From NCBI GenBank assembly GCA_022414725.1, contig CM039462.1:123447786-123511785 (forward strand): a stretch of DNA of 64,000 nt, given 5' to 3'. The position numbers and the translations under genes are program-made. Below are positions 23,065-56,488 of the stretch, one piece after another. Position 1 is the stretch's first letter. Every line of letters starts with the position of its first letter. The notes under the pieces were generated by a model. It ran no database searches, had not been told where the DNA came from, and worked only from the letters and a program-made list of their open reading frames with translations. Source of the stretch: Microglena sp. YARC (taxonomy: Eukaryota > Chlorophyta > Chlorophyceae > Chlamydomonadales > Chlamydomonadaceae).

Positions 23065-26000
23065 ATGACAGGCCTAGGGACAGTCTTCACACAAGGTAGT
23101 CATAAAGTTCAAGGTCGCACCAAGTTGCGTATTTTCGCGATGAGTAGATTAGGTCACATAGCGGACCTGGAGAACATAAATCCTGTTTCCGGGCTGCTTT
23201 CTTACCAGTCTCGACAGGATGGTAAGGTCCAACTGAGCACCCAAGGGAGTAAGGATGCCCATGCTGCCGCTCTGAAGTGGCCAGCTCGGCGTCCCCTGAG
23301 CGATGTCACCGCGCATTTCACGTTCCAGGTGAGACATCCGGCCGAAACTGAAATACGCAAAAGCCAAACTCGAAAACTGTGTCCATATTATTAGTTTGGG
23401 GGGGGATCCTGCACCTATTTCACCCATCCTGGAAAGCTTCGTCTTGACTTTCAACCCAACCAGTGACACCACATCTTGACCTCCCTTGTGTCAATGCAGC
23501 TCGGAAGAGTGGAAGAGGTCAATGCACTAAGGGCCCACACCTTGTTTCCTGGGAAGCCTACTGAACCCCGCCAGGTATGTCCAGTTGCTGCACATGCTCG
23601 CTTGTTGATAAGCTCTCCATGGAGCTGGCCGGCTGACTCCTTTCTGTGTTGTGGTTCTCAGGTAGAATCGATATTCAGGGGGCCAAGCACAAGTCTTGAT
23701 GGTGAGTTATATCTATCTGACAGGCTCAGCATTAGGGCAGTCGGTCAAATTGGCTGCTAGGAGGTGGTGTTTGAGCTTGGCATCACTATCATCATCCCCT
23801 GCAGATTTTGGGGGCTTCCCCGCCCTTGTCTGCACCCCTACGGCATTTTTCCCACCCAGAATGCATCCTTTTTAGCCAATATGAGGGTGCTGTAGACCCC
23901 CCACATTTGTAGTGATAGTGTCAGTAATTCACTAACTTATTAATAGGGATGATATTAAATGCATAGCAAGACTACTTCTTCGAGCTTGCAACTTCAATGT
24001 TGAATCAGAAAGGAGTACCTCTCGTCCTGGCAGAATTTGCAGGTGCTGTGATATGGTAGTTTACGGTAGAAGAGTGGTTGAAGATGAAATGCATTTCATA
24101 CTAGAATGTCCTTTACACGCTGAGGATTTTCACTCTTTAAGAAAATGAAAAATGGAGCTGAATTAGCGGGGGGGAACTCCAGCATGAAGCTGGTCATGAA
24201 TCCTGATTCCTTTGAAGGATGGAAATACTTAAACAATTTAAAGAATGCAATAAGAATAGAACAGATGAGATGATGATTCACTTATATTGTATAATTAAAT
24301 GATCACTGTAGCACGAACTCAGGGCCCTTGTTGGTAAAACGATTGTTTGGGGTTCAGTTCATCAATGATTATTTTTTAGCCCTTCCTATCACGATTGGGC
24401 AAGTCCCTTTAGCCTAATTGGCCTACCCCTGGAATGTAACATACATACAAACATACATACGAGATGTGCAGTTCAGGCTTTGGATAGAAGGTCGTGACAA
24501 GGGCAGAGCTCATCAGCCCATCTCAACTGCCGGTGCTGATGTCTTGCAGGGTCTCACTGTCAAGCTGTGGCTAGGAACAGCCTTCGGCGAATGCGATAAG
24601 TCACTCCTCCTTGCTTCCCACATCAGCTCTTGGCTTTGCCTCTTGGAACGCGCTGGAGCATCAGATCTCAGAAGCGTGTTTCAGCAGCATTGAGAGCTGG
24701 GATCCTAAATAAGAGCCTGTCGACTGTGACTGCTGCTAAGGTCCGCGTCCACCATCCTTCCTCATCACGAGTATTTCATGACACAACCATGCAATTGTGT
24801 AGGATCTTCTGCGTCTGCTCGTATCTCTGAATATTTGTTTGGTCCCTTACAAGGGAGGGCAATGTGCCTCGCAACTCCCATGCAACAGTCAAATGGAACG
24901 CATGCCTCGCAGTATTGCTTGCAAGTACAAACCATACAGACTGGAGAGGTTATTAAATCATGTGCCGCATCCGCACATAGCTCCTAAGGTCGTTCTAAAT
25001 TCTTTGCTGGTAGTGAGGCCGACACCAAGTGATGTCTGCTGCCCTCAAAGTAGCAGAGACTCCACTTTTACACCGGATGCAGTCCCACTTATACCTAGGA
25101 GTTTGGCGTCGACCAAGGCCTTCGGCCCACACCACCAGCGCATGAACCCTCGACATGGACCGGTCACCTCAAGTCGGTAAGGGCACTTAGCCCAGATATT
25201 TAATCACATTATGGGTCTGTTTCAAGCAGCGTTGCAAATCATGGTGCGCGGCACATCAAGCAACACAGCTCTTGGACAGGTTGGTTGGGCAAGTCCCTTA
25301 AGCCTATTTGGCCTACCTCTAGACTGTCATCTTGTGTTGGCGCTGTAGAAAGGGCTAGGGCAGGTTCAGGTTGTTGGAGAAGAGTGTAGTAGGGGATACT
25401 ATACTTGTTCCTTCGCTGAGAATATTCCAGAACAGATGTTGCAATATTTTAACAGAATTTCAAGAACTTAGTAGTACTACTAGTAGTGGGTGGATGCAAG
25501 AGTAATGATGTATGGCCATAGTTGTCAAATGAATGACAGAGACATGCAACAGGGCTACTATGATAGATCCAGATGTATTAGACAAGTTCTTGAGCTGCTT
25601 CAATGGCATTTGATTGATCAGTTACATTTAACACTTTCTTGACCTGCTTCATTATCATTTGATTGATCGTTTAAATTAAAAAGCTTTTGACCTGCCTCAT
25701 TGTCATCTGATTGATCATTTACATTTAAAAGTTGTTGGCCTGCTTTTTTGTCATTTGATTGATTATTTACATTTAAAAGTTTCTTGGCCTGCTTTATTGT
25801 CATTTGATTGATCATTTACACTTAAAAGTTTTGGGGGGCTGGATCATTGTCATTTGTTTCATCATTTTAATGTAAAATCTTTCTTGCGCTGCTTCATTGT
25901 CATTTGATTGATCATTTACATTTTGGGGCTCTATGGTGAACCACGTTGATGGACACCCTTCTCTATTCAGGGATGTCCACGATTTCCTGTTTGGGCTACG

Positions 26001-26557
26001 CGTAGCAGCTTCTAAGCAGCTCCCTTTCCATGTCCTTAGGAAGAACTTGAAGCTAGCTGGTGCATCTGAAAGCTGATATAACAAGCATTCAAATGAAGCT
26101 GTACACTGTGGGCTTAACCCATTGACTGGCTTATGGAGCTGGCTGGAATGTCATGTGTAGCCCAACAATGAAACAGTCAACCTGATGAGGAACTGTGTTA
26201 GTATGATCATATGTTGCAGTGAGATGTGGTGGTGCTGCCAGATAAATAAAAGTGGGCCAGATGAACTGAAGAAGTGGGCCAGATAAGAAATAGTGAGCCT
26301 GCAAGTGAGCCTGATAATAGAAAGTGTGGAAACGTGTACCTGCCACTTCGAACTCAAAATAATTCGCTACACTAAATATCCAATTAATTCCAGTTTGTGA
26401 CTCGCACACACCTTGCCACATCGTGATTCTTTCTCTTTTAGTTCCTCCTCAGTGGCTCAGTGCCTTCCGAAAACGCTTTGAGAGATTATGCAACCCAAAA
26501 AAGAGGATTGAGGCTATGAGCAACCGAGGAAGGCAGCAGTTACAGGAGAAGCAGTAG
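23065..26557 (+). CDS. Unrecognised small gene, four-exon model, about 163 residues
   Basis: Proposed exons 23065-23328, 23500-23574, 23662-23701 and 26442-26557 have AG/GT borders and consistent phases (0, 0, 1). Exon 2 is exactly 25 codons (LGRVEEVNALRAHTLFPGKP...), exon 3 carries VESIFRGPSTSLDG, and the last exon, after the acceptor TTCTCTTTTAG, encodes PPQWLSAFRKRFERLCNPKK and ends GRQQLQEKQ-stop. The C-terminus is strongly basic. I recognise no domain. A second ATG at 23058, seven bases upstream in another frame, would give only 13 codons before TAG. A later in-frame ATG at 23140 is an alternative start. The gene lies divergent to the cyclophilin gene with about 330 bp between the ATGs. 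Further small exons in the 2.7-kb intron cannot be excluded. Confidence 0.42.
24010..24280 (+). mobile_element. LINE zinc-knuckle fragment, degenerate
   Basis: A plus frame reads SRPGRICRCCDMVVYGRRVV then EDEMHFILECPLHAEDFHSL, the C-x2-C...H...C arrangement of the LINE C-terminus. It lies in the large intron of the unrecognised gene. Confidence 0.55.
24284..24462 (+). repeat. Dispersed repeat F, full copy
   Basis: From TATATTGTATAATTAAATGA through GAACTCAGGGCCC and GGCAAGTCCCTTTAGCC to a CATA-repeat tail (ACATACATACAAACATACAT). The tail orientation suggests retroposition. Confidence 0.65.
25606..25926. repeat. About 62-bp tandem repeat, six copies
   Basis: Unit CATTTGATTGATCATTTACA then TTTAAAAGTTTCTTGGCCTG; copies drift by indels and substitutions. 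Confidence 0.85.
25985..26176. mobile_element. MITE family A copy (GGGCTACGCGTAGC end type)
   Basis: CTGTTTGGGCTACGCGTAGC at the left, and CATGTGTAGCCCAACAATGA then AACAG at the right, are inverted ends. It lies in the large intron of the unrecognised gene. Confidence 0.7.
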
Positions 26558-26877: not shown

Positions 26878-27073
26878 CTGTTTGTTTAGCTACGCGTAGC
26901 AGCTTCTAGGCAGCTCCCTTTCCCTGTCCTTTGGACCAAACCTGAAGCTAGCTCATGCTTATGGGAGCTGATATGACAGTCAATCCAATGCAGCTGAAAT
27001 TTGGGGCTTGACCCAGTGGCTGGGTGATAGAGCTGACTGGAAGCTTCCATGAGTAGCCCAAACAAATAAACAG
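26878..27073. mobile_element. MITE family A copy
   Basis: CTGTTTGTTTAGCTACGCGT then AGCAGCTTCTAGGCAGCTCC at the left; GAGTAGCCCAAACAAATAAA then CAG at the right. Confidence 0.7.
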
Positions 27074-27079
27074 TGTCCA

Positions 27080-31404: not shown

Positions 31405-34400
31405 ACAAATAAAAAGCTTATTTTCGGTCATTGAGAACTATTGATGCCGTAATGATGGGTTTGAAAGTGGATTAGAGAAACTCGTGTTTATGGAATTCCA
31501 GAAGACAAGGAGGGAAGCTTGCTTGTCCGGTTTACACTGCCACATCTACTAGCCACCATTTTCAACGTGCAGGTGATATGCCCATCCACACTGCCACAGC
31601 CATACCCATTACTCCCCCCCACCCCCACCCACACACAACACACACTCATACCCCTCCCCCTAACCCACACCCCACACCCCCACACACACACTCATACACC
31701 CCTGACCTCCTCCCCCACCCACAGCCATACAAACACGAACCAAGGCACTCATACCCTCTCTGACGTATCACTCACACACAAACTAACACTACAACAGCCA
31801 CGCCCACTCCGGACCTCCCCCTGGTATCTGCCACTCACGCAGCCAAGTTCATGCGCTCAAAGCCATGCTTTGTGTCAAATTAATAGGGACCGGCATATCA
31901 TGTGATATTGACCAAAGGCATGAATAATGTCATAGGATAAGATACAAATTGAATCATATGATATTGTATATAAATGGTAACTGTAGCCTAGTCAGACTGC
32001 CGGCATTATATGACATCATATTGCCGTTCCCTACAAATGAACCACATCCAAGCAGCCCAGCACGCAGTTCATTTCTATTGTTTTATTTCTAGGTACAAGC
32101 AGCAGCTTCTAGGCAGCTCCCCTGGCTGGCTAATCAGCCAAACCTAAAGCAACCTAGTGCACCTTGAAGCTGACGTAATCAGCTTTCTAGCACTGCAGAA
32201 TTTTGGGGGCTTGGCCCAGTGGCTAGCTCAGGGAGCTGCCAAGAAGCTGCTGCTAGTAGCCGAAAAGGAAACAGTGAGGTCATCAACTCACCGTCCCATT
32301 GCTTGCGGACACTAACTTCCAAGAGCCTAGCATGTTGTTGTCCAGCACGGCGAAAAGGAAACAATGAGATCACTAACTCACCGTCCCATTGCTTGCGTAC
32401 ACTAACTTCCAAAAGCCCAGCATGTTGTTGTCCACCACGCTTGGGCTTGCTGGGTTGATGCCGAAACTACTTTCTGACATTTGGTCAGAAATAAACCTTG
32501 GATCATCAAATCTCAAGTGAAAGCGGTAGTCATCCTTTTGAAGCCTCTCCAACAAAATATCCACCTCTACCTTCTCCTGAGTCAGTCCAGGTGAAAAAGG
32601 AGTAAGCATAAATGAAGAGATCACAAAAGAGGCACCATGGTTTCATTTTTGGCGGAGCCCCCCCATCTGTGGGGCGAGAGCCCCCAGATTCATGTAGCTG
32701 TCTGTCTGTCCGAACGTCCGACTGTCCGACGACCGAGAAGAAGCCTGACACGTCAGCCAACTGTCTCATAACTAACTGCCTTCGGTTAGCTCCATCGTTG
32801 CCACCTGATGTTCCGTTGCCAACACTCTCCGCCAATTTTCTGCGTCGCTTGCGATGCTGCATAGGACATGCTGGGCTACGCATGGCAGCCTCCAGCCAGC
32901 TCCAACAGCCAGCAACTAGATAAAGCCGAAAATTTCAGTTGCATTGCAATACCCGTAATGTCAACTTTCAGACACATTAGCTAGCTTCCGGTGGGAAGGA
33001 GCTGCCTAGAAGCTGCTACACATAGCCCAAAAAATGAAACAGTGAGTAAGCATGCAGGCTTTGAGGTTCACTATGAAGGAAGCATGCAGGGTGTCAGGGC
33101 TGTCGATAAATAAATAAATAAACAAATAAGTAAATAGACAGGTTGCCTTATTACGAGGCGTGAGGTTGAGGGGGCCAGCCTGTTTGCTTGCACTGTGGCC
33201 AACCACCAATGGGCTGCCGATAATAATTTGGTACTCTTTGTTGTTGTGTGGTTGGTAAACATGATTCGACTCCATCATTGCTTTTATTTTCAGGCACCAG
33301 CAACAGCCTCTAGGCAGCTCCCCTGGCTTGCTACCCATCCAAACCTGTAGCAATGTAGTGCGGCCGGAAGCTGATAGAATTGTCTTTGTAGCACTGCTGA
33401 AATCTTGGGGCCTAGCCCAGTGGCTGTCTCAGGGAGCTGCCTAGAAGCTGGTGCTCATAGCTGAAAAGAACAGCTACGAACTACATGTCCAACAGACATC
33501 CGCTGCCCAGAACTGTCGAAATCGTGGGGCTTAGCCCAGTGCCTGGCTCAGGGAGCTACCTAGAAGCTGCTGCTCGTAGCTGAAAAGAAAAGCTATGAAC
33601 TCCATGTCTCACTCATGTTTCCTCTCCACATCACACATCCCACGGCCTGGGGGATATTGTAACCCAACCTAAGAGGTACAACAGGGAACAAAAACTGTCC
33701 ACATCACACATCCCACCGCCTGGGGGTGTTGTACCCCAACCGAAGAGGTACAACAGGGAACAAAAACTGTCCACATCACACATCACACATCCAACCGCCT
33801 GGGGGATGTTGTACCCCAACCTTAGAGGTACAACAGGGAACACAAACTGTCCACATCACACATCCCACCACCTGGGGGATGTTGTCCCCCCACCTTAGAG
33901 GTACAACAGGGGAAAAAATAAAAATTGCCATACTAAACAAAAACGACCCAACAGAGCTGTGGGAAAGATCTACGTTCAAAGCTGCAGCAACATTAGCCTA
34001 TCCAAAGTGTGTGTGTGTTTGTTTGTCACAAACGACTTTTCCAGGTTTCACTTCAAATCACAAAAAAACGGAACATTGTATACTATGTAACAATTTGAAG
34101 ACTTATTGACACCGGACAGATTCCCACGAGAGCACATATGAGCATCGCAATGTAAGACAAGGAGCTAAGATTTGTGCTTTGGGGGGTCAAAAGCTACAAT
34201 TATCGGGTAACCTTTTTTTAACATTTCAAATTCGTACCATCCAAACATGTGCGCAGCAGTACCAACCGCCACTCCCCACATCTCTCTTCCTCAGTGTTTT
34301 CTTTTTCTTTTTCTTTTTGCTAAAAGCAGCAGCTTCTAGGCAGCTTCTCTGACTGGCTATTCGGCCGAATCTAATGCAACCTAGTTTGTCTGGAAGCTAA

Positions 34401-37929: not shown

Positions 37930-39389
37930 GGAATTCTGATACATGGGATAATGTACTGCCGTACTGATAATATAAGACACTGAAGGCACTAATAAAGTAC
38001 ATGCAGTATTGCAGTATGTCAAATTAGGAGGTTGGATAGGGGTGGCATAAAAGGTGCACAATCAGTAGTATAACAAGTGGGTCATGTAAGCTTTGCGGGG
38101 GCTGTGTCGAAGTTACGGTATGCGGATGCGATAGAGAAACTTGGGAGACCCACCTCCTGGAGTGAAAGTCCTTTCACAACTTTTAAAAAACCAGGTAGGT
38201 AGGTTCATGTTTGAAGTCTAATATTTCCATGGAAAGGTGGGCTAGGTATGTTGTGGTCTGAAACCAAACAATTCCATGACAAGGCGCGCTAGGTATGTTC
38301 ATGTGTTAGAAGTCAAATAGGTCCATAACAAGGCCAGCCAGGGATGTTCCAGTCTGAAGTTTAAGCACACGCTGATATCAAGCTCACCTCTGGTCTGGCG
38401 AGATTGCCTCTGGTTTCAAACATGGTATGAAAGAATGGACTGCATTTACACTGTCATCGATTATGACCAAACAATATTTAGGAAACTGGCAAATGGGCAG
38501 CCCAGAAGAAGAAGTTGGCTGGAAGTGCCAGCTGGTTTCTCGGTACGCTCAGCTGACTCGACACAAACCCTTAGGGATTGTGTTTTCCTCCGCGCCGACG
38601 GTGGTCCAAACCCCGCACATGCGTCCGATTCTCTCATTCCTGCGCTAACTCATCATCGACTGCACATCACGACCTCAAACTTTAAGACCTTTTCATTATG
38701 CAGATGCTGAACAAAGGTGCGAGGATTATGCCCAACCGAGCTAGCAAGGCTGGCCACGCGCAGAAGCTCAAGCCATGCAGGGTTGCAGCCAGCGAGAAGC
38801 CTTCTGTTGCCGTATTAAATGACCCTACAAGCGTGAGGTGAGGAGCATGAGTCGAAGAAGTTCGATTCGGAAGGGCTACTACCGGTATGCTGGCTCTAGT
38901 TCTGGGGCGTGTGTGGTACGCGTCACGTGCGAAGGTGCTTCTTCTGGTGGCTAGACCGTTTTACCCATCGCGGATGTCCTTACGCCTCATCGTTGGGCAT
39001 TGCCTTGCAAGGTGCATACAACGTGCACAGCTCGTGCAGTTACTCTACTACTTGGATTGGATGTTTTGTGTCCAGGTCAGCGTTATTTTTCACGTTGCGC
39101 CCGGGTGGGCCCTTCTGACCCACACCCACCCAGGCTGACATGCGGTCTCTACACCTCCCTCCAAGCTAACTCAGGCGCTCTACACTGCTTTTAAATCGAT
39201 GCATGTGATTGGTGGGGCTTAACCGTTGCCCGTGGGTTACTTTGCGTGCGTGACCGTGCGCACGTGGAATCAGATCGACTCATTTACTATTGCATGGTGT
39301 CTACTATCCGGCAATAGACTTATCTCCCAGCTAACTGCAGCCACACTCCATTTCGACTCATGGAACGTCTCACTATCTGTTGCCTGCAG
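37930..39389. other. Upstream region of PurK-PurE; start exon not identified
   Basis: Holds three diverged units of about 60 bp (GGTAGGTTCATGTTTGAAG type) at 38195-38360 and GC-rich open stretches at 38887-39120, one of which is rich in Arg and Cys but ends in the wrong phase to join the acceptor at 39389. Confidence 0.4.
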
Positions 39390-42300
39390 CGACAATGGTC
39401 TGCCCAGGAGCACCGTGGTCGGAGTGCTGGGTGGCGGCCAGCTAGGACGCATGATGGCTCTCGCAGCGGTGAGATGGCACTAGGAGTACCTTTGCGGTGC
39501 TTTGGTTATGTAGGCGGTAGCATGCATTCATGTTTTACGGATTTTCCCTCCTTACGCGCCCGCCCTCTCTCCCCTAGATCTAATCCTCCTCCCCGGAACG
39601 TTCCAACTGCCCATGCAGCACCCCAAATGCTGAATGTCCTCAAGCTAGTTCACATATACTCCCCGCCCCCCCTCCCTCCCAAACACTTTCCTGGGGCACA
39701 TGCACACACACTGACATGAACATACTGCCGGCTGCATGTCCCCGTGGCGTTCCTCCTGACTTGACCCCACATGACATCCTCTCATTGCTCTTAGCTACTC
39801 CCTTCCTTTATATGCCCCACAAATTCCCACCAACTCAACTCCAGGACATCACTTCGATCCCATGATCCATCCAGCAGCCTACCAGGAACTTCACATGTTG
39901 CATGTGCCCCTCCTTCCAGTCCCAACATCAACCACCCACCCACACCAACTCAACCCCCAAACACCAACCCACACCTCCAAACACCAACCCACGCCAATCT
40001 CCAAACTCCACCTCAGGCTAACATGGGCGTCACCTTCAAGTGCCTGGACCCCTCCGACCTGCCCCCTGCTGCTGTTGCCGCTCATGTGGTGAAGGGACAC
40101 TTCCGAGATGCTGATGCCATCACTAACTTTGCCACTAGTGAAGGGGTGGATGTCCTGACCACTGAAATTGAGCACATTGATACCGGCGCTGTCGAGGCTG
40201 CTGCCAAGGCTGCTGGTTTGGATGTCGAACCTACCCCTGCCACCATTAGGGTAAGGGCCACCCATGCAGTGCATGCACAACAGTCACCAGATCCCTCCCA
40301 CCCATGCACTAGTATGTGTAGGGTAGGAATAACTATAGGTTGTGGCTCGCCTATCTTGTGCTGCCATGTGACCTCATATCTGTAGGGAACGGTAAAATGA
40401 TATCAATATGATATCATATGATGCCAGCAGTCGGACTAGGACAAAGTTACCATTTATACACAAAATCGCATGGTGCATTTTGTATGATATCATACTCGCC
40501 TTAGTTCAACATCATATGATATGCCGGTCCCTACAGATGTGACATGAGAGGCACATTTGACATGTTGGCCTATTGCAGCTGCCGTATCTTGTAACTTGTG
40601 TCCATCCCAGCATGCCCCCTTCAATCCACAAACTGAATGTGCCTCCCTGTACCTACACCACCATGCAGATGATCCAGGACAAGTTCTACCAGAAGCAGTA
40701 CTTCCAGAAGAATGGTGTCCCCCTCGCTGAGTTCCGCCAGATCAAGTGCAAGGGCTGCATGGAGAGCACAGGACAGAAATTTGGTTTCCCTTTCATGCTG
40801 AAGAGCAAGAGGTAGGTGTTGTGACAGAAACACACTTGCGTGTTGGGTGTTTGGCGCAACAGGGTGTTGCGGAAGAATTCAATGTTTGTTGGAATTGAGG
40901 GCTGGGGAGATGGAAAGGAGTGGGTGGGTTGGCCTCCTGGGTTAGGTGTTCGTGGGTTTGGTCGGGTGGGTTTGGTGTGGGTGGTTAAGTGTCAGAGTGG
41001 TTGGTGTTGGGTTTGGGGTTTGAGTTGCCGTAGATGAGTTGCCCCAAGCTCATAAGTAGGGACCAGAATACCATATGATGTTGATCAAAGACAAATATGA
41101 TCATATGATATAAGTAAATGATACAAATTGCACCATATGATGTTGTATATAAATGGTAACTTTAGCCTTGTCAGAATAATATATGATAAGAGATGATAAT
41201 ATATGATATCATATGATATGATAATACATGATGTTATAATATTATATGCTATCATGTAGCCGTTCCCTGCATACATGCCATGCCCCCCGTACAGGTAGGC
41301 TTATGACGGCAAGGGGTCATGAACCCATGAACCCATAACCCCATGACCCCATAACCTCATGAACCCATAACCCCATGACCCCATAACCTCATGACCCCAT
41401 AACCTCATGACCCCATAACCCCATGACCTCTTGACCTCTTGACCTCATGACCCCATGACCCCATGACCTCATGACACCATGACCCCATAACCACACCCAT
41501 AACACCATGACCTCTTAACCTCATGACCCCATAACCACACCCCATAACACCATAACCTCTTGACCTCATGACCCCATAACCCATGACCTCATGACCCCAT
41601 GACCCCATAACCACACCCATAACACCATAACCTCTTAACCTCATGACCCCATAACCACACCCCATAACACCATAACCTCTTGACCTCATGACCCCATAAC
41701 CACACCCCATAACACCATAACCTCTTGACCTCATGACCCCATAACCACACCCCATAACACCATAACCTCTTGACCTCATGACCCCATAACCACACCCCAT
41801 AACACCATAACCCCATGACCTCATGACCCCATAACCCCATGACCTCATGTTCCCTACATACATGCCATGCCCATTCTACAGGTTGGCTTATGACGGTAAG
41901 GGTAATGCCGTTGTCAAGACTGAGGCGGACATTGAGTCTGCCGTCGCATCTCTGGGAGGATATGAGATGGACTTGTATGCTGAGAAGTGGGCTCCCTTTG
42001 TGAAGGAGCTAGCTGTCATGGTTGTTAGGTGAGATACAATCAGAGCTGGCTCTCGCTGGTTACTTAGGCTTGAGGGGCGGTCCATTGAGTTTCTGTGAGG
42101 GTATGAGTTGGACCTGTACGATGAGAAGTGGGCTCCCTTCGGTAAGGAGCTAGCTGTCATGGTCGGAAGGTGCAACATAACAACCAGAAAGATTGGACCC
42201 CCCCCCCCCCCCCCCCCCCCCGAGGTGTCGTAGCAATAAGAAAACAGAAGTTAAAATTGCCAACAATTTAAAAACTCACCCTTCTTGTATGCTGAGAAAT

Positions 42301-45300
42301 AAACACCCTTCTTGAAGGAGCTTTTGTCACACAGTTGTAAGGTGCGACCGGCCTTTTCTAAAGGTGCGATTCAGTGGAAATTGCGATCATTAGACTAATC
42401 AGTTTCTGGCTGGTGCGATTTCAGGTCATTTTTTGCCCTATTGAATTGCACCACAAAAAGCGAGTTCAACATTCTTGCCCATGGTGGAATCACTCTGAGC
42501 ATCTCTAGTTTCGCACCAGCTACCCCCCTGTCATTGCACCATACAGTGTGCCAAGGACCAGTCAGGGCAGTGTGGGAAATTGGGCGCCCTTGATGAAGGA
42601 GCTGGCTGTTTTGGTGGTTAAGTTAGACACAACAAGACACAGCAACCGACGAGAAACATTGGCTGCGAGTGTTGGCTATCGGAGCGAAAGGTGGCAACGG
42701 AATCGAGTGCAGCAGACTGAAGCCAGGGTTTACGAGACTGTAAGGGCCAGGTTTTCTTTTTTCTCATGGTCTTAATGCTGCAATGTTAACCACATCAGTT
42801 CAACATGAATATACCGTTTTTTGCTCAGAGTTTTGGAACCAGGTCAAGTGGCATGGTGGGGCTTAATTTTGAACGTGTGTGCAGTAATGCATCTGTGTTA
42901 TTGTTCTCACCTGTCTCTTAATTCGTGGAGCGTTTAATCCAATAGTCAGGCCTGTAGCCCGCAATTGCTCAGAATGAATGGCATGGTCTTGGTAAGTATT
43001 AATGAGTAGTCGATCTGTAGATTCGCAAGGGAAAGGAGAACGAGATGCAAAGGAGCAGAGCTCACCTGTCTCAGCTGACTTAGTACAGTAATGCTCACCT
43101 GTCTCAGCTGATTTAGTACAGTAATGCTCACCTGTCTCAGCTGATTTAGTACAGTAATGCTCACATGTCTCAGCTGATTTAGTACAGTAATGCTCACCTG
43201 TCTCAGCTGACTTAGTACAGTAATGCTCACCTGTCTCAGCTGACTTAGTACAGTAATGCTCACCTGTCTCAGCTGATTTAGTACAGTAATGCTCACCTGT
43301 CTCAGCTGATTTAGTACAGTAATGCTCACCTGTCTCAGCTGATTTAGTACAGTAATGCTCACCTGTCTCAGCTGATCAAGCCACTGCGCCGAAAACAATT
43401 TATTGTGGTATCCAGCTCTCCAAAGTGACAGCTCACCATCAGGGTACTAAAAAACGTACATGTCTACTTTTTTTGCTAGGTTTAAAAAAACATTTTTTGT
43501 ATTAAAGGTACTCTGCAGAGAGATAACGTAAGTTGACAAAAAAGGTATCCTGTGCTTTCATGCATAGACTTACTTTTTTGTTGGGAACGGCAACATGATT
43601 TGTTGGGAACGGCAACATGATATCATATGACATGGCAGTCTGACTTTAACATTTACATACAATAACATATGGTGCAATTTGTATGATATCATATGGTATC
43701 AGACTCGCCTTCGGTCAGTATCATATGATTTTCCGATCCCTACTTACTTGACATCTGTGTGTGACTCGAAATGTGGTGTCTAGCTCTCGAATGTGACAGC
43801 TCACCATCAGGGTACTACAAAATGTTTTAGTGCTTAATTTTTAGCTAGGTTTAAAAAACCGATTTTGGGTAAGAAAGGTACTCTGCAGAGAGATTTGACA
43901 AAAATATTTTGGCAAAAAGGTATCCTGTGCTTTCGTGCACAGACTTACTTGACATCTGTGTGAGACTTGAACTCAGGTAAACCTTTATTACAAACAAGTC
44001 TCGTGTATCCACCATTGACATGCTCCTCAACTCTGTGCTTCATCACAGGGCTCGTGATGGAAGCGTGAAGTCCTACCCTCTCGTGGAGACCGTCCACAAA
44101 GATAGCATCTGCTGGGTCACCGAGGCCCCTGCTGATGTGCCCAACAAGGTGTCGGTTGCGGCAACTGCTGTGGCAGAAAAGGCCATTGCTTGCTTGGATG
44201 GAGCTGGCATCTTCGGGTGAGGACCCCATTTGGTTTATAGCTAAAGCTGTGTATGCCCTCTCTACATGCCATTTATACATGGCCATGGCTGCATTAATGC
44301 TAAAGCTATATATGAAGGGCGTCTGGAGGCGCGTCCCGAATGAAATGCAATTTATTCTGAATTCATAGCTGCATTAAAGCTAAAGCTATAGATCATATAT
44401 GCCCTTTATATAGGTTCATCTTTAATTTCCAATCGCGAAGCGCCCCTTAAGTACGAGCTGGCATCTTTGGGTGCCACCCACCTTTCTCTGCCTCAGAGTG
44501 GAGATGTCAGTGATGGCTGATGGAATTGTACTGCTAAATAATGTCACTGTACTGCTGAACAAGATCGCCCCCCGCCCTGACAACAGCGGTCACTACACCC
44601 AAAACAGATGCATCGCCAGTCAGTTCGAGAACTTGCCACTCGCCTCTCCCGTCAACTGCCACCCACCATTCCCTCCTGCAGAGTGGAAATGTTTGTGATG
44701 GCTGATGGCTCTGTCCTCCTGAACGAGGTTGCCCCCCGCCCCCACAACAGCGGTCACTACACCCAGAACGGATGCATCACAAGTCAGTTTGAGAACCACG
44801 TGCGTGCGATCCTCGGATGGCCCTTGGGTGACACTGAGCTCATGGGAGGATCAGTGCTCATGTTGAACTTGATCGGTGAGGCTGACGGCGAGGAGGGCAC
44901 GAGGATTGCCCACCAGCGTATGGCAGCCGCTTACAAGCTGCCCGGTGCTAGCGTGCACTGGTATGGCAAGGCTGATGTGGTCAAGGGACGCAAGGTGCGC
45001 ACTTTCTTGTTATAATTGCACTTCTTTGTTATAAGTGCACCTCCTTGTTATAGTCGCCCTGGCTTGTTACAATTGCACTTCCTTGTTATGATTGTGATTT
45101 GGTCAGCTAATGCGAAAGGTCTTGAGCTTCTCTCTCACAATATGCAATAACATTAAACTTCCACTTGTACAATTTTGAGTAAATCATCTCGGAAGGCAGA
45201 AGTTAATACATGCTTGAATTATTTTCTCTTTAGGTGGGTATAAATGGGACAGAAGGATGGCTTTAAATAGGGAAAAGATGCTTCAAAGGGGTCCTTGTAA

Positions 45301-45351
45301 TGTCCTTGCAATTTGGGTAGGTGGCACGAAGGGCCGACCTGGAGGGTTCAT

Positions 45352-45384
<33 letters not shown>

Positions 45385-48300
45385 AGATTCGAGTCTCTTG
45401 GAGGTGAAAGGTTAGGCCCCAAAAAGGGTCCCAGGTAGTGATTGCCACTTGAAGCAAAAAAATAAAGCTCTGGTAAGAACTTGAGTGGAGCAAGTTCCAT
45501 CTCGAGCCAAATGCATTTAGCACTCGATCAGGGACCCTGGCAACGAGGGTGGTTAGCGTGTTTGAATTTGATGATGGTTGACCTGGCAGTTGGGATGGGT
45601 GTGGGGGGTATATTTGGTGATTGGTAGACCTAGCAGTTGGGCTTGTGTTTGAAGTTGATGATGGTACACCTAGCAGTTGGGAAGGGCGTGGGGGCAGGAA
45701 TTTTTATTTCCGCTATATATAGCGATTGCTAGTTTTGAATTTCGCGATAATTTCGTTATAGCAAAATGATCGCTATAAAAATGTTTTTTGTTTGCCCTAA
45801 AAAGCTAAAAAAGCTACAGAAAGCACTAAAACGCCGTCCCTGGAGGAGGCAAAAATATATATAGCTAGGAGAAACCCACTTTCAGATTAAAAAAAAATCA
45901 CTGTGTGGGGGGGTACCAGCGTTGGTATCGAGCTTCAGGGCCTTCTATAAGACAAGGAACCAGTGTCTTGACTTGGCACCATGGTGCTCCTAGTAGCTTT
46001 TGGGGTGCTACTATCAGCTTTTGGGGCTCCAATGGCAACCCCAAAAGACTCTAACGGGGCACCCCCAAAACAAGAAGATACATAATTTACCACTTCTGCT
46101 ATATATAGGGACCGGCACTTCACATGATGTTGACCAAATCCAAGTATGATATGATATGAAACCATACCAAGTATGATATGATATTGTTTATAAATGATCA
46201 CTTTAGCTTAGTCAGACTGCCGGTATCATGTGATGACATGATGTCATATGATATCGTACTGCCGTTCCCTATATATATAGAACCTTCAAGAAAACCCTTA
46301 TGATTTTCCTGCTTCAAGCTGAGCTCGGTATTTTTGTTTTGTGCGATGCGTCACAAATTGAGCAGCTTTATGTGACCCCAGAGTGAAGCGCTACCCCCCA
46401 ACCCCCCCGGGGCTCCGTGCTTTGCGCTCCGCCCTATACCTGGCTATGCCACAATCCTGAAATCAGGCCTGCGTCGCAAATTCTGCTACACAACAGGACC
46501 TACAGGAATCTGAAAACAATTTGTAGCTGAACTCTACCTGGGCATGTAGCTGAACCTGGCCCCCCTCACTCGCAGATTGGACACATCAATATCGTGGCTA
46601 AGAACCGCGAGGAAGGTCGCAAGAAGCTTGGTATGTTGGACGCGGCTGGTTCTGACGCCCTGCGCCAGTCTACTGTAGCTGCTGCTCTGGCTGGTCTTGG
46701 TAGTGAGGAGGCTGGTGGCAAGCCCTTGGTTGGTATCATCATGGGCTCTGACTCGGATCTTGCTACCATGAAGGCAGCTGCTGAGGTGAGCTTTACCCCT
46801 TTTAAAACCCCACACTTGACCCATACTTGACCCACACTTAGCTTACATTTACCTTACATTTGCTGGCTCTGCATCTCAAATAGGTATAATCACTTTTAGT
46901 TTTTTAATTTATGTCCTTTGACAAATTATAAATAATTAAGCGCAAATGAGACCTTGGTCAGCACCGTTATAGGGTCTGACTAGGATCTTGCAGCCATGAA
47001 GGCAGGCGCTGAGGTGAGCTGAACCCCCTTTAAAACCCCACACTCGACCCATACTTTGCTGAACTTGCATTTGCTGAATTCCAGGCCAAAACTGAGGTAC
47101 GAACAACGAGCGACACCTGTTGAGGAAGATCAAAACCCAAATCATCCCCTGAGTTGCTGTAATCATATGTGTGGTTGGCCCCAGGGCAAGCAAATGCGCT
47201 GGCCCCCTCAACCTCACGCCTCGTAATAAGACGCACTATTTATTTATTTATCCATTTATTTATTCATTTATTCATTTATGTATTTATTTAATCATATGTG
47301 GTGTCCCCTCTTTTATTTGTAGATGCTGGATGACTTTGGCATTGCTTTGGAGCTCACCGTTGTGTCAGCTCATCGCACTCCCGAGCGAATGATTGAGTAT
47401 GCCCGCAGCGCTCACAAGAGGGGACTGAAGTGCATCATTGCTGGTGCTGGTGGTGCCGCCCACTTGCCTGGCATGGTGGCCGCCCTCACTCCCTTGCCTG
47501 TCATTGGTGTACCCGTGAAGCCCCCTGGTTATGGACTGGACGGAGTGGACGCCCTCCTCTCTATTGTACAGATGCCTAAGGTGAGAAGAGGTGGAGAGTG
47601 TGGGCACTATTTCTTTTGGGGCCTCTCATGGTAGTTTCCAGTCAGCTACGTCAGCCAGCCACTGGGACAAGCCCAAAGTTTTCAGCTGCGTTGTCATATC
47701 AGCTTTCAGACACATTAGCTAGCTTCTGGTTGGGCCCAAGGACATAGGACGGAGTGGACGCCCTCCTTACTATTGTGCAGATGCCTAAGGTAAGAAGACG
47801 TGGAGTGTGTGCATTGTTTCTTTTAGGGCTACTCATGGCCTGTTCTACTAAGTGTTTTCAAATGTTTTTCTACTCGTTGCCTTCGCGACGCGACGCGACG
47901 CTTTGAGACGCTTGCCATGTTTCATAATTCCGTCCACTGTTTATTTTTTGGGCTAAGCTGGCAGCTTCCACCTAGCGCCAGTAGCCAGCAACTGATTCGA
48001 GCCCCCAAAAGTACAGCTGCATTGGAATGCCTGTCATGCCAGCTTCCAGACGCACTAGCTAGCTTCAGGTCTGGCCCTAGGGTGGGTGAAACGACCTTCC
48101 TAGAAGCTGCTACACATAGCCCCAGAAGCAGTTTGCCTCAAGGTATGCCTTATTATGAGGCATGAGGTTGAGGCAGCCAGCCTGTTTCCTTGCTCTGGGG
48201 TCCACCAAATGATCTTCCTATTTCTGCAGGGTGTCCCTGTTTCGGTGTGCTAAGTTAGAGCTTTGGTGGGGTTACTTTTTAGGGCAAAAAAGCTGGTAGG

Positions 48301-48615
48301 AGCACCCCAAAGGCTACAAGGAGCACCATGGTGAAGACATGGTTTCGTTTCATTAAAAACAACCCTGCCTTGCACTGCCTGTTCTACTATGGAGCCAATC
48401 ACCAAATAATCTTCCTATTCCTGCAGGGTGTCCCTGTTGCCACTGTTGCCATCGGCAATGCTGCCAACGCTGGATTGTTGGCCCTACGCATCCTGGGCAC
48501 CTCAGACCCTGTAATTCTTGACAAGATGGTGGACTACCAGGCCAATATGAAGGAGATTGTGCTGAAGAAGGCCGAGAAGTTGGAGACACAAGGATGGAGG
48601 GACTACAAGGCATAG
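39390..48615 (+). CDS. Phosphoribosylaminoimidazole carboxylase, PurK-PurE fusion (ADE2/plant type), nine exons, N-terminus unresolved
   Basis: De novo purine synthesis: converts AIR to CAIR. Exons read directly: 39390-39468, 40017-40250, 40669-40811, 41882-42028, 44049-44216, 44682-44994, 46576-46785, 47323-47580, 48427-48615. All have AG/GT borders and matching phases, about 580 residues in total. The N-terminal ATP-grasp PurK half shows [27 protein letters not shown] and [14 protein letters not shown]. The C-terminal PurE half shows [15 protein letters not shown] and [16 protein letters not shown], including the conserved His of SAHRTP. The order and length match the plant/fungal fusion enzyme. 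The exon holding the start codon, and any transit peptide, must lie before the acceptor at 39389; the frame there stays open upstream without an ATG. Stop TAG at 48613. Several exons have decayed copies in flanking introns (see findings). Identity is very secure; splice sites are inferred from sequence alone. Confidence 0.95.
40383..40533. mobile_element. MITE family B copy (inverted orientation) in PurK-PurE intron
   Basis: TAGGGAACGGTAAAATGATA left; ATCATATGATATGCCGGTCC then CTA right. The flanks TCTG/CAGA extend the symmetry. Confidence 0.75.
41057..41268. mobile_element. MITE family B copy, lengthened by ATGATAT repeats
   Basis: TAGGGACCAGAATACCATAT left; ATCATGTAGCCGTTCCCTG right; the interior AT-rich segment is repeated. 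Confidence 0.7.
41320..41850. repeat. CATGACCCCATAACC-type minisatellite in PurK-PurE intron
   Basis: Short units nest in a 53-bp unit containing AACCACACCCCATAACACCA; it ends 30 bp before exon 4. Confidence 0.9.
43055..43378. repeat. 33-bp minisatellite, 10 copies, in PurK-PurE intron
   Basis: Unit GCTCACCTGTCTCAGCTGAT then TTAGTACAGTAAT; one copy has CACATG. Confidence 0.95.
43580..43742. mobile_element. MITE family B copy with duplicated left end
   Basis: GTTGGGAACGGCAACATGAT occurs twice in tandem (43580 and 43602) before the core; right end GATTTTCCGATCCCTA. Confidence 0.7.
44482..44650 (+). pseudogene. Decayed duplicate of PurK-PurE exon 6 in the preceding intron
   Basis: After its own acceptor CTCTGCCTCAG it reads [16 protein letters not shown]..., then [20 protein letters not shown], against the live [20 protein letters not shown] at 44683. 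It has an internal insertion (repeat of the TGTACTGCTGAA segment), diverges after CAGTTCGAGAAC and lacks a donor. Confidence 0.85.
45700..45905 (-). repeat. Dispersed repeat H, reverse copy in PurK-PurE intron 6
   Basis: CGCTATATATAGCGATTGCT is a perfect-looking inner palindrome; then GCGATAATTTCGTTATAGCA and GTCCCTGGAGGAGGC. Confidence 0.6.
46105..46272. mobile_element. MITE family B copy flanked by TA repeats
   Basis: TAGGGACCGGCACTTCACAT left; GATATCGTACTGCCGTTCCC then TA right. Flanks are TATATA on both sides, consistent with insertion at TA. Confidence 0.75.
46335..46520. repeat. Dispersed repeat with GTGCGACG blocks, copy 2
   Basis: GTGCGATGCGTCACAAATTG ... CCCCCAACCCCCCCGGGGCT ... 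AATCCTGAAATCAGGCCTGC ... GGACCTACAGGAATCTG. It ends 55 bp before PurK-PurE exon 7. Confidence 0.5.
47945..48128. mobile_element. MITE family A copy in PurK-PurE intron
   Basis: TTGGGCTAAGCTGGCAGCTT left arm; CTTCCTAGAAGCTGCTACAC then ATAGCCCCAG right arm. A further core fragment lies at 47640-47740. Confidence 0.6.
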
Positions 48616-48688
48616 ATTTGAATTGTTGCATGGTTCTTCAGCCAACTTGAGGCTACTCACTGCCTGCCAATTCCAAGTCCCCCCGTGC

Positions 48689-48870
48689 AATTCTTGACAA
48701 GATGGTGGACTACCAGGCCAATATGAAGGAGATTGTGCTGAAGAAGGCCGAGAAGTTGGAGACACAAGGGTGGAGTGACTACAAGACATACATTTGAATT
48801 GTTACATGGTTCTTTAGCCAACTTAAGGCTACGCACTGCCTGCCAATTCCAAGTCCCCCCTGTGCGATAC
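48689..48870 (+). pseudogene. Tandem duplicate of the last PurK-PurE exon and 3' UTR
   Basis: GACAAGATGGTGGACTACCA to GGAGTGACTACAAGACATAC repeats 48518-48612, and the following 3' UTR (TTGAATTGTTACATGGTTCT) repeats 48617-48680. The copy ends in ACATACATTTGA instead of TAG after GCA. Confidence 0.9.
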
Positions 48871-53702: not shown

Positions 53703-56488
53703 ATGGCTACGGATACAAGTGATTTCACACCTGTGTGGCCACGCCCAATGCCTGAGGTTCTAGACCTACCTGACAGGAGAGCAGTGGATTCTCAGAACCA
53801 TGGCTACAAATTTGTGGTGTACGAATCAGGCCGCAACGGAAAAAAGCGAGAAAGACCGTATTGGGGCCAAGTCAAACTCTACGCAAAGGAACAAGCTGAG
53901 CTACCAGAGAGTCTCCGGACTGGTGCTTCCAAGGAGAAAATAAAGGTAACATGATGCTGGTAATCTCTGGTGTTAGGACTGGATAGGCTGATGGCACATC
54001 TGATAGCTTGATGCTGATTATTACTACTAATTGCGATACTTGTGAGTGTTCCAACTTTTATTTTTTTGATTATTATAATTTGATACACAATATAATGATA
54101 CATTTATAATATTAGAGTACTAGTGCAGTGCCCGTGTGGACGTTGGGCAGACTTGTTTTGGAGTGGTATAGAACAGTTAGTTATAGAACAAGTTAGTTAT
54201 AGAACAAGTGGGTATAGAGCAAGTGGGTATAGAACAGTGGGTATAGAATGGTTAGTTATAGAACAAGTGGGTATAGAACAGTTAGTTATAGAACAAGTGG
54301 GTATATAACAGTTAGTTATAGAACAAGTTACACCTTTGCCCTCCCCCCCACCCCCCTTCCCCACTCCACCCATCCCCTCCCCTCCCTCGACACACATACA
54401 ATTTGATTTTTTTCTGCTGCAACTGAACCTTTCTTACGAATCTCCCCCTCCTTACTGTCCTTCCCCCTCTCCCTCCCTCCTCCATCGACCCATCCCCCCC
54501 CCCCCCCCCCCCCCCCCCCTCTATCCCCCTCTATCTCTCCACTCCTCCCACCCCACCCCCTCCTTCTCCCTCCCCCATGCACCCACAAAACACATCACGA
54601 ATACCCCCTACTCCCCCCCCCCCCCCCCCCCCCCCCACACACACTCCTTACCATCCTCACCAATCCATTCCTACCTCAGCTTCCCTACCCCTCCCTCCTC
54701 CCTCCCATCCACCCACCCCATCCTACCCCACCCTCTCTCCCTCCCATCCTTTCCCTTCCTCCCTCCCTCACCTCCACACCCATACACATACATACCACAC
54801 TACTTCTCCCTAACTCTTCCCTACCACTTTAGGTGTGGGCTTAGCTGATGCCTAATGATTAGGGATCGGCATATCATATGATTTTGACCTACGGCGAGTA
54901 TGATATCATATGATATCAAACAAATTGCATCATATGATATTGTATATAAATGGTAACTTTAGCCTAGTCAGACTGCCGGCATCATATGATATCATATGAT
55001 ATCATATTGTCTATCCCTACTAATGATGGACGGGACAAAGGGCAGCCACAACTGGCGCTCGTTTGCACATATTCCGTCCTAGCTGAGAACTCCGGACTGT
55101 CGCAATCTCTGAGCTACTTACCGGCAGCTATTGAATGCTTCCTTACGCGTCATTATCATTATTGTTGTTTTGACCAGCAGGGGCCTTCATTCAGCCACTG
55201 TTGTCACCCTCTCACTATAGCATTGCGCTTAGTAACAGTATTCTTGGTGAAAGGGAAAGAGGGTGCAGAGATGTTGGGAGCATTGCAATGGGAAGAGAGC
55301 ACAGACAATAATGGGCATGGAAGTACATAAGAGCACAGGCAAGGGTAGTTAAATAAGTTTGGATTACACCATCAACCACAGCGAAGGCAAAGTGCCCATC
55401 CGTGAGACGGATTCAGAAAACGTTCGCAGGCGGAGAAACACAGCTGATTGTTTGAATTTCCGTCGGGGCAGCCGGATATAACGGTCCTGAGTGACACGCC
55501 GACCAGGATATTTTTAATCATATAGATATATGAGATTGCGAGGACGGTTGTCCCCAGGGATAGTCACCTGTTTGGCCTCATAAAAGGTAATGATAACGCC
55601 TGGTAGGGCGTGGTGTTAAGGGAGCCCGTCGTACGCGGGTGGGGAGTGGTCTCCTACCTCAACTGGACAAGCTACCATCGCGGTTGACGACAACCTGCAA
55701 CGCCAAGAGGCTACCTAGAAGGGGGAGTCGAACCCCGACTCTTCTTCCTCCAGCAATCTGGTCTACCGCTAGACCATTGCATATCACTGATAGGGGCTGC
55801 TTGGCCTCATACTTATACAAGTATATAAGTTCTACCCGATTTGCATGATTATTTAATCAATTCTGCAATTTCTGTTACGCAGACAATCGCCACAAATAGC
55901 TTTGAGACTGCTGAGGAAGCCGCCAAGGCGGTGGAACAGGTGGGTGCCTGCACTGCTCTTCTTCTCCTGCTACGGCTCAATGGGGGGGGGGGGGGGGGGG
56001 GGATGCTGCCTATAAGCTGCCAAGGCGGTGGACAGGTGGGTGCCTGCACTGCTCTTCTTTCCTGCTACGGCTCAATGGGTGTGTGTGTGTGTGTGTGTGT
56101 GTTGTGGGGGGGGGGGAGGATGCTGCCTAGAAGCTGGCAAGGCGGGGGGCTTGGAACAGGTGGGTGCCTTGCACTGCTCTTCTTTCCTGCTACGGCTCAA
56201 TGGGGGGAGGGGGTGGATGCTGCCTAGAAGCTGCCAAGGCGGTGGACAGGTGGGTACCTGCACTGCTCTTTCTTTCCCTGCTAACGGCTCAATGGGGGGG
56301 GGGGGGGGGGGGGGGATGCTGCTATAAGCTGTCAGGCGGTGGACAGGTGGGTGCCTGCACTGCTCTTCTTTTCTGCTACGGCTCAATGGGGGGGGGGGGG
56401 GGGGGGGGGGGGAGGATGCTGCTATAAGCTGCCAAGGCGGTGGACAGGTGGGTGCCTGCACTGCTCTTCTTTCCTGCTACGGCTCAAT

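What the first reader, a model, noticed from the sequence alone, without database searches (positions are those of the whole stretch)
41270..48870. Exons of one gene echoed by decayed copies in the adjoining introns
In the PurK-PurE gene at least five of nine exons have partial duplicates close by, always with a splice site or exon edge: exon 4 (41882-42028) has an upstream copy at 41270-41316 and downstream copies at 42092-42174, 42285-42345 and 42565-42625; exon 6 is copied at 44482-44650; exon 7's end at 46961-47055; exon 8's end at 47740-47840; exon 9's start at 48186-48245 and its body at 48689-48870. Divergence differs between copies, so duplication was repeated over time. This is not gene duplication and not a transposon pattern; it suggests continuing local duplication at exon edges, a possible route to new introns or alternative exons.
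Basis: seen in the sequence. Interest (0 to 1): 0.9.

Follow-up and report, generated by a model that had tools for sequence, protein, structure and literature searches.

The report
Introns holding decayed exon-edge copies
In a green alga's purine gene, and in most other genes sampled from the same genome, introns carry worn nearby copies of the neighbouring exon edges; they look like by-products of frequent small local DNA duplications rather than of any attraction to exons, but they leave introns with many look-alike splice sites.

Summary
All nine listed echoes of the PurK-PurE exons are there (78-94% identical, direct); a tenth, 19 bases at 44455-44473, was missed. The gene has ten coding exons (the finding's exon 4 is exon 5 here). 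The window lies in a 568-Mb assembly; the protein groups with chlamydomonadalean green algae. The pattern is not confined to this gene: under one rule 23 of 46 exons (PurK-PurE plus seven chaperonin stretches) have local echoes, and ten kinesin places repeat the same part of the profile. One chaperonin intron contains six copies of its own acceptor plus exon start. Local direct duplications occur in 19 of 20 sampled stretches (170 direct, 22 inverted pairs). Over eight genes exon edges are not preferred: coverage falls from mid-intron (0.42-0.54) through intron ends (0.36) and exon edges (0.31) to exon interiors (0.13), as expected of indiscriminate duplication filtered by selection; PurK-PurE alone is mildly edge-rich. 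In 30 of 32 residue differences tested the exon has the commoner residue, so the echoes are decaying. Known kind of event (small local duplication), apparently unusual in extent. Splicing of echoes, intron gain and the repair pathway are untested.

The parts
38698..48615 (+). PurK-PurE (AIR carboxylase) gene, ten coding exons, 626 aa
   Evidence: Spliced open frame with GT..AG at nine of nine introns; Pfam ATP-grasp and PurK_C (exon 7), AIRC (exon 9); EukProt protein P0001 identical except for its last eight residues
41882..42028 (+). Exon 5 (the finding's exon 4), source of four echoes
41262..41321 (+). Echo of intron 4 end plus exon 5 start, acceptor AG kept; begins inside the end of a MITE-like element
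   Evidence: 51/59 identical; element
41318..41849 (+). Minisatellite of CATGACCC-type units filling the space between the E5-start echo and the sequence that matches it before the true acceptor
   Evidence: TRF
42092..42188 (+). Echo 1 of exon 5 end plus intron start, donor GT kept
   Evidence: 80/94; one in-frame stop
42284..42347 (+). Echo 2 of exon 5 end, donor GT kept
   Evidence: 49/62; one stop
42578..42637 (+). Echo 3 of exon 5 end, GT kept
   Evidence: 47/60
44455..44473 (+).
   Evidence: 18/19; below the score of the shuffle control
44472..44632 (+). Echo of intron 6 end plus exon 7 start; acceptor AG kept; contains a 21-base insertion
   Evidence: 119/140 plus 21 gap columns; AG; no stop with the insertion left out
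46949..47072 (+). Echo of exon 8 end plus intron start, donor kept, one in-frame stop
   Evidence: 101/124
47747..47838 (+). Echo of exon 9 end plus intron start, donor kept; its last part lies in a dispersed repeat
   Evidence: 81/92
48180..48241 (+). Echo of intron 9 end plus exon 10 start, acceptor kept
   Evidence: 52/59
48683..48858 (+). Second copy of a 176-base head-to-tail duplication of exon 10 end, stop codon and 3' flank; CCCTGT at both outer breakpoints
   Evidence: 166/176, copies abut; breakpoints read
43404..43971 (+). Duplication lying wholly in intron 5 (43404-43575 ~ 43772-43950), split by a later MITE-like insertion
   Evidence: 80.6% over 180; ACTTACTT on both sides of the insertion

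Best explanation
The echoes are the worn second copies of small local duplications (171 of 205 clusters have a shift of 60-239 bases) that happen widely in this genome, many of them head-to-tail. When a duplicated stretch straddles an exon edge, the outer copy stays the working edge, the mRNA is unchanged if the outermost splice site is used, and the inner copy is left in the intron to drift; repeats of the event build short arrays of the exon edge. Duplications inside coding sequence mostly change the protein and are lost. Shown: direct orientation, wide occurrence, no excess at exon edges over eight genes, drift in the echo; head-to-tail layout in some cases only. Inferred: that spaced copies were once adjacent, the molecular step (staggered or paired nicks with fill-in end joining, or replication slippage), and that the outermost splice site is used.
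For: Ten of ten echoes are direct and within 600 bases of their source; no inverted pair touches an exon. Window: 74 direct against 17 inverted local pairs, 0 in 5 shuffles. Twenty 10-kb stretches (18 at regular steps on three contigs, two beside the window): 75 clusters in 131.8 kb unmasked, 170 direct against 22 inverted, at least one in 19 of 20. Other genes: 12 of 36 chaperonin exon matches in 5 of 7 stretches under the strict mask; 23 of 46 exons with PurK-PurE under the lighter mask. Kinesin: 22 of 128 matches lie in overlapping neighbour pairs (ten places, two doubtful); five places chosen for this were fetched and 5 of 5 show DNA-level copies, 3 abutting. Coverage: exon more than 100 bases inside 0.134, 51-100 0.226, 31-50 0.271, outer 30 0.305; intron 1-30 0.355, 31-60 0.339, 61-120 0.378, 121-250 0.394, 251-500 0.416, 501-1000 0.539, beyond 1000 0.197; same trend without L030 and L031. 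Residues: exon residue commoner among 119 relatives in 30 of 32 (1 tie, 1 reverse) over seven of the ten echoes; stops in three of those seven. Nonsynonymous divergence 0.095 is near one lineage's share of flank divergence (0.149/2; 0.183/2 with the dispersed-repeat part). Random pieces hitting exons would be 60% edge, 38% internal, 1.5% whole; observed 10 of 10 edge in PurK-PurE.
Against: Only 1 of 10 PurK-PurE echoes abuts its source; one is separated by a minisatellite, the rest by spacers of 24 to over 200 bases. In the chaperonin stretches 11 of 44 listed exon segments lie wholly inside the profile match, though match limits are approximate. Synonymous differences are too many for one constrained and one neutral copy: observed share 0.50, simulated 0.33-0.39 (P 0 to 0.02). 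Clusters are denser in the gene than in the rest of the window (1.25 against 0.46 per kb, P 0.009). 6 of 11 gene clusters touch an exon by 15 bases or more (P 0.004 to 0.06 by assumed detectability; 0.04 to 0.29 if five intronic arrays of my choice are added); with the 12 bases of E10 start it is 7 of 11 (P 0.0006 to 0.016). Rotating the exon set gives P 0.04-0.07 for shifts to 700 and 0.07-0.12 for shifts to 1500. PurK-PurE alone has its highest coverage at the edge. Clean microhomology was seen at one event; a wider test was inconclusive.
Confidence: 0.76

Rival explanations
1. Duplication is drawn to exon edges, for example by splicing-linked or transcription-linked DNA breaks.
For: Enrichment in PurK-PurE alone: 6 or 7 of 11 clusters touch exons, edge bins highest there, gene denser than its surroundings; 9 of 9 splice-edge echoes keep their GT or AG.
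Against: Over eight genes coverage rises away from exons with no peak at the edge; exon coverage is below intron coverage in the chaperonin genes.
Confidence: 0.1
2. Non-tandem capture: break repair copied a nearby stretch and pasted it into an intron break (repair-mediated duplication as in primates).
For: Short distance, pieces of exon plus intron, spacers at 8 of 10 echoes; such events copy exon and splice-site pieces in primates (PMC2671141, abstract and two sections read).
Against: Direct-orientation bias (170 to 22; 74 to 17), some abutting copies and multi-copy arrays fit head-to-tail duplication better.
Confidence: 0.14
3. The echoes are dying alternative (mutually exclusive) exons that once were used.
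For: E7 echo has an acceptor and no stop in the compared part; excess of synonymous change.
Against: No PurK-PurE echo has both splice sites; three of seven compared echoes have stops; in 30 of 32 residue differences the exon has the commoner residue.
Confidence: 0.05
4. Assembly artefact.
For: Repeat-rich long introns are hard to assemble; no reads were available to me.
Against: PurK-PurE copies differ by 5-22%, several with their own indels or stops, and one duplication holds a later insertion; the same pattern occurs in unrelated genes on other contigs.
Confidence: 0.02

Closest known systems
Small tandem duplications from break repair (PMC8355091, abstract and passages read; Vaughn and Bennetzen 2014, seen only as a reference there)
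   Same: Direct, head-to-tail, short; reported in natural variation of humans and plants; thought to arise from nearby single-strand breaks on opposite strands and fill-in synthesis.
   Different: That paper speaks of insertions under 100 bases; here shifts of 60-239 bases are the rule, many copies are spaced, and they build arrays that cover 29% (strict mask) to about 41% (lighter mask, summed) of sampled intron bases.
Repair-mediated duplications of nearby DNA (Pace et al. 2009, PMC2671141, abstract and two sections read)
   Same: Nearby source, up to 619 bases, can carry exon pieces and splice sites.
   Different: Of 824 human cases four donors were partial exon/intron, two full exon and two intron/full exon/intron; here about half of the sampled exons are involved and direct copies prevail. 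The two measures are not the same.
[quoted passage not shown]
   Same: Tandem copy of an exon-intron structure; the potato case reused the parent splice signals.
   Different: No new intron is shown here; the copies lie in introns that exist already.
Internal gene duplication, tandem exon duplication and degenerate exons in introns (Gao and Lynch 2009, not held, seen as a citation; Exonize PMC12343006, abstract and section list read)
   Same: Exon-like, degenerate copies in introns of the same gene.
   Different: Exonize reports full-exon duplications; here copies are partial and mostly straddle a splice junction.

Membership tests
Small tandem duplication | Copies in direct orientation near their source | tested here: met
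Small tandem duplication | Copies abut their source | tested here: inconclusive
   PurK-PurE: 1 of 10 abuts (E10 body), one is separated only by a minisatellite, eight have spacers of 24 to over 200 bases; kinesin: 3 of 5 fetched places abut (L036, L037, L038), L039 nearly, L040 has a spacer
Small tandem duplication | Microhomology or fill-in marks at breakpoints | tested here: inconclusive
   CCCTGT at both E10 breakpoints; 47 high-identity pairs gave no clear answer because partial arrays are mixed in
Intron gain by tandem duplication | A new intron absent from relatives | not tested
   No relative's genomic DNA was looked at
Tandem (mutually exclusive) exon duplication | A complete second exon with both splice sites | tested here: not met
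   0 of 10 PurK-PurE echoes
Introner or other mobile element | Copies dispersed at unrelated loci | tested here: not met
   Exon 5 region only: genome search with 41270-42700 gave 53 other matches, which cover the minisatellite (query 48-588) or an intronic dispersed repeat (1079-1310), none the exon or its echoes (40 of 715 candidates scored). Other exons were not searched in the genome

The most novel reading that the evidence does not exclude
In this alga introns grow largely as satellite-like arrays of their own splice junctions: units carrying acceptor plus exon start (or exon end plus donor) multiply, even in higher-order repeats, while keeping usable splice dinucleotides, so that many genes carry a standing set of near-identical competing splice sites from which new exons, longer exons or split introns can arise, and the spliceosome must pick the outermost.
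Probability: 0.25. Interest if true: 0.8.

Novelty: new variant of a known kind. Interest (0 to 1): 0.5.

Why it matters
Duplication at splice junctions has been proposed as a source of introns and exons mostly from single cases. Here is a genome where worn copies of exon edges are common enough to count, date and test: which of many near-identical splice sites is used, how fast introns lengthen by duplication, and whether any echo becomes an exon or splits an intron. It also warns that gene models and profile searches in such genomes can report false extra exons.

Tried and rejected
Organism: I first guessed Cymbomonas from the repeat-rich look and searched its papers (listing; passages); a tree with 119 relatives puts the protein with Haematococcus and Dunaliella (support 0.912), so I dropped it. 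The species is not established.

Other genes in the window: 116 of the 176 frames were scanned and gave 0 Pfam families. A codon-usage scan gave 14 segments: nine of the ten PurK-PurE exons, one echo, three simple-repeat segments and one of 22 residues. So generality had to be tested on the genome.

Selection on echoes: pN/pS 0.29 first looked like constraint; flank divergence and residue polarity showed nonsynonymous change near the neutral one-lineage rate. Three echoes (E5 start, E6 end, E10 start) were too short in coding sequence and left out. The excess of synonymous change remains unexplained; synonymous differences had no codon-preference direction (12 against 11).

Kept splice dinucleotides: 9 of 9 in PurK-PurE; chance of all kept without constraint 0.054 (the AG of E7 was mis-indexed there and checked). 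By eye, acceptor echoes of two chaperonin exons keep AG in 5 of 6 and 4 of 6 cases. Suggestive only; array units are not independent.

Nucleosome-sized units: exon-touching shifts seemed by eye to cluster near 165-210, but all units together peak at 80-119 (67 of 205) with a small bump at 180-199 (20), so not claimed.

Literature: searches; none of the listed titles and abstract beginnings (6 to 20 per search) reports genome-wide exon-edge arrays. The library holds open-licence papers only.

Full report
What is there. One gene was recognised in the window: PurK-PurE on the + strand, ten coding exons, 626 residues (other frames scanned). A public protein, P0001, is identical except for its last eight residues; the window encodes that tail from 49761, so its gene model probably splices from 48579 across the exon 10 echo (inference). 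The protein groups with Haematococcus and Dunaliella. The genome search placed the window in a 568-Mb assembly of 2390 contigs.

The echoes. All nine listed echoes were confirmed with limits differing by at most 18 bases, and one more of 19 bases was found. Identities are 0.78 to 0.95. All ten are direct. Nine carry a splice edge and all nine keep GT or AG; the tenth is a 176-base tandem of the exon 10 end with stop codon and 3' flank. Block-shuffled sequence gave no pair of 36 bits or more in 5 of 5 trials; the 19-base echo is below that score.

Which copy decays. Seven of the ten echoes have enough coding sequence to compare. Where residues differ, the exon holds the commoner residue of 119 relatives in 30 of 32 cases, with one tie and one reverse. 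Three of the seven have an in-frame stop. Nonsynonymous divergence (0.095) is close to half of the divergence of flanking intron and 3' sequence (0.149 without, 0.183 with a dispersed-repeat part), as expected if only the echo drifts at these sites. Synonymous divergence (0.40) is higher than that picture predicts; simulations put the synonymous share at 0.33-0.39 against 0.50 observed. I have no explanation; unequal rates at third positions or exchange between diverged alleles are possible.

Order of events. The E5-start echo begins inside the end of a MITE-like element, so it is later than that insertion; a minisatellite now fills the space between its two copies. The intronic duplication 43404-43575 ~ 43772-43950 is older than another copy of the same element, which sits in its first copy between ACTTACTT repeats. 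So duplications and element insertions alternated.

Is the exon edge special in this gene? 443 of 1881 exon bases (23.6%) and 1691 of 6940 unmasked intron bases (24.4%) lie in local direct duplications with shift up to 700. The gene has 11 clusters in 8.8 unmasked kb, the rest of the window 20 in 43.7 kb (P 0.009). Six of the 11 touch an exon by 15 bases or more, seven if the 12 bases of exon 10 start count. That exceeds a uniform model unless longer detectability of exon-anchored copies and some intronic arrays are allowed for (P 0.0006 to 0.29 by assumption). Rotation of the exon set gives P 0.04-0.12. In this gene alone the edge bins are the highest. Within PurK-PurE the case is therefore open.

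The genome. Eighteen 10-kb stretches at regular steps and two beside the window have 75 clusters in 131.8 unmasked kb (0.57 per kb), 170 direct against 22 inverted pairs; 19 of 20 have at least one. With the strict mask 12 of 36 exon matches, in 5 of 7 stretches, have local echoes; exon coverage 1545 of 8253 (18.7%), intron coverage 7800 of 26920 (29.0%). Of 44 listed exon segments 33 reach over an edge of the match and 11 lie inside it; match limits are approximate, and at least one match (L030, 9563-9721) is itself an echo of its neighbour. With the lighter mask and PurK-PurE added, 23 of 46 exons have at least 15 echoed bases, and coverage falls from 0.54 (501-1000 bases into the intron) through 0.36 next to the exon and 0.31 in the outermost exon bases to 0.13 deep in exons; beyond 1000 bases it is 0.20. 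Leaving out the two richest stretches keeps the trend (0.39, 0.27, 0.22, 0.12). There is no peak at the edge over these genes. In the kinesin family 22 of 128 profile matches lie in neighbour pairs repeating the same part of the profile within 1 kb (14 pairs, ten places; two places, at C1 129363692 and 190770077, involve matches with several stops and may be read-through). Five places, picked because they showed this, were fetched; 5 of 5 have DNA-level copies, three of them abutting.

The extreme cases. In L030 the acceptor and first bases of one chaperonin exon (match start 7098) are preceded by six copies, five of which keep AG, in what looks like a higher-order pattern of two alternating unit types; its donor side has three copies downstream, one of them cut short. 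In L031 another exon start has six upstream copies, four with AG (read by eye). These introns are in good part copies of their own splice junction.

Mechanism. Direct orientation, some abutting copies, arrays and shifts mostly of 60-239 bases (171 of 205 clusters; 29 are 240 or more; periods under 40 were masked) fit small tandem duplication. Against it, only one of ten PurK-PurE echoes abuts its source, so spaced copies need later insertion or growth, or capture by break repair. Published work ties small tandem duplications to breaks with complementary 3' ends, filled in by Pol alpha-primase and joined, with polymerase theta as the microhomology-rich alternative (PMC8355091, passages). The one clean young case here, E10, has CCCTGT at both breakpoints, but a wider microhomology test was inconclusive. 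Replication slippage is not excluded. That FEN1-deficient yeast makes tandem duplications between short repeats is recalled, not read.

Known or new. The kind of event is known; so are exon-derived copies in introns (PMC2671141, PMC12343006) and intron gain from tandem duplication (PMC3443670, PMC4974935). What seems unusual is the extent: half of the sampled exons, and introns with many near-identical splice sites. No comparison with another alga could be made here, so 'unusual' rests on published statements for other organisms only.

Noticed in passing
40376-40537, 41053-41272, 43594-43755, 46105-46278; also 2626-2809, 12062-12151, 31873-32038, 54847-55028: MITE-like AT-rich element of about 165-220 bases with ends like CTGTAGGGAACGG / CCGTTCCCTAC; eight places in the window (one partial), four in PurK-PurE introns; one flanked by ACTTACTT (8 bases, hAT-like by recall).
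   Followed up: partly
47601-47744, 47935-48122, 26889-27075, 20139-20326, 25993-26177, 32872-33028, 17363-17473: Second dispersed repeat family of about 190 bases; related to the 80-base minisatellite at 17424-17788.
   Followed up: partly
42350-42579: Intronic dispersed repeat with 36 other places in the genome search (72-85% identity), lying between exon 5 echoes 2 and 3.
   Followed up: no
L030:6120-7175: Intron array with two alternating unit types (ending TGTAG or CACAG), apparently a higher-order repeat inside an intron of a chaperonin gene.
   Followed up: partly
L024: A 10-kb genome stretch that is almost wholly tandem repeat (475 unmasked bases; exact shifts of 82, 243-244 and 325), perhaps a satellite block.
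   Followed up: no
48579 and 49761: Public protein P0001 ends with NGDRLKLS, which fits a splice from inside exon 10 to 49761 and replaces the usual C-terminus; perhaps a prediction effect of the duplicated exon end.
   Followed up: partly
exon-echo codon alignments in 41952-48788: Synonymous differences exceed what one constrained and one neutral copy should show.
   Followed up: partly
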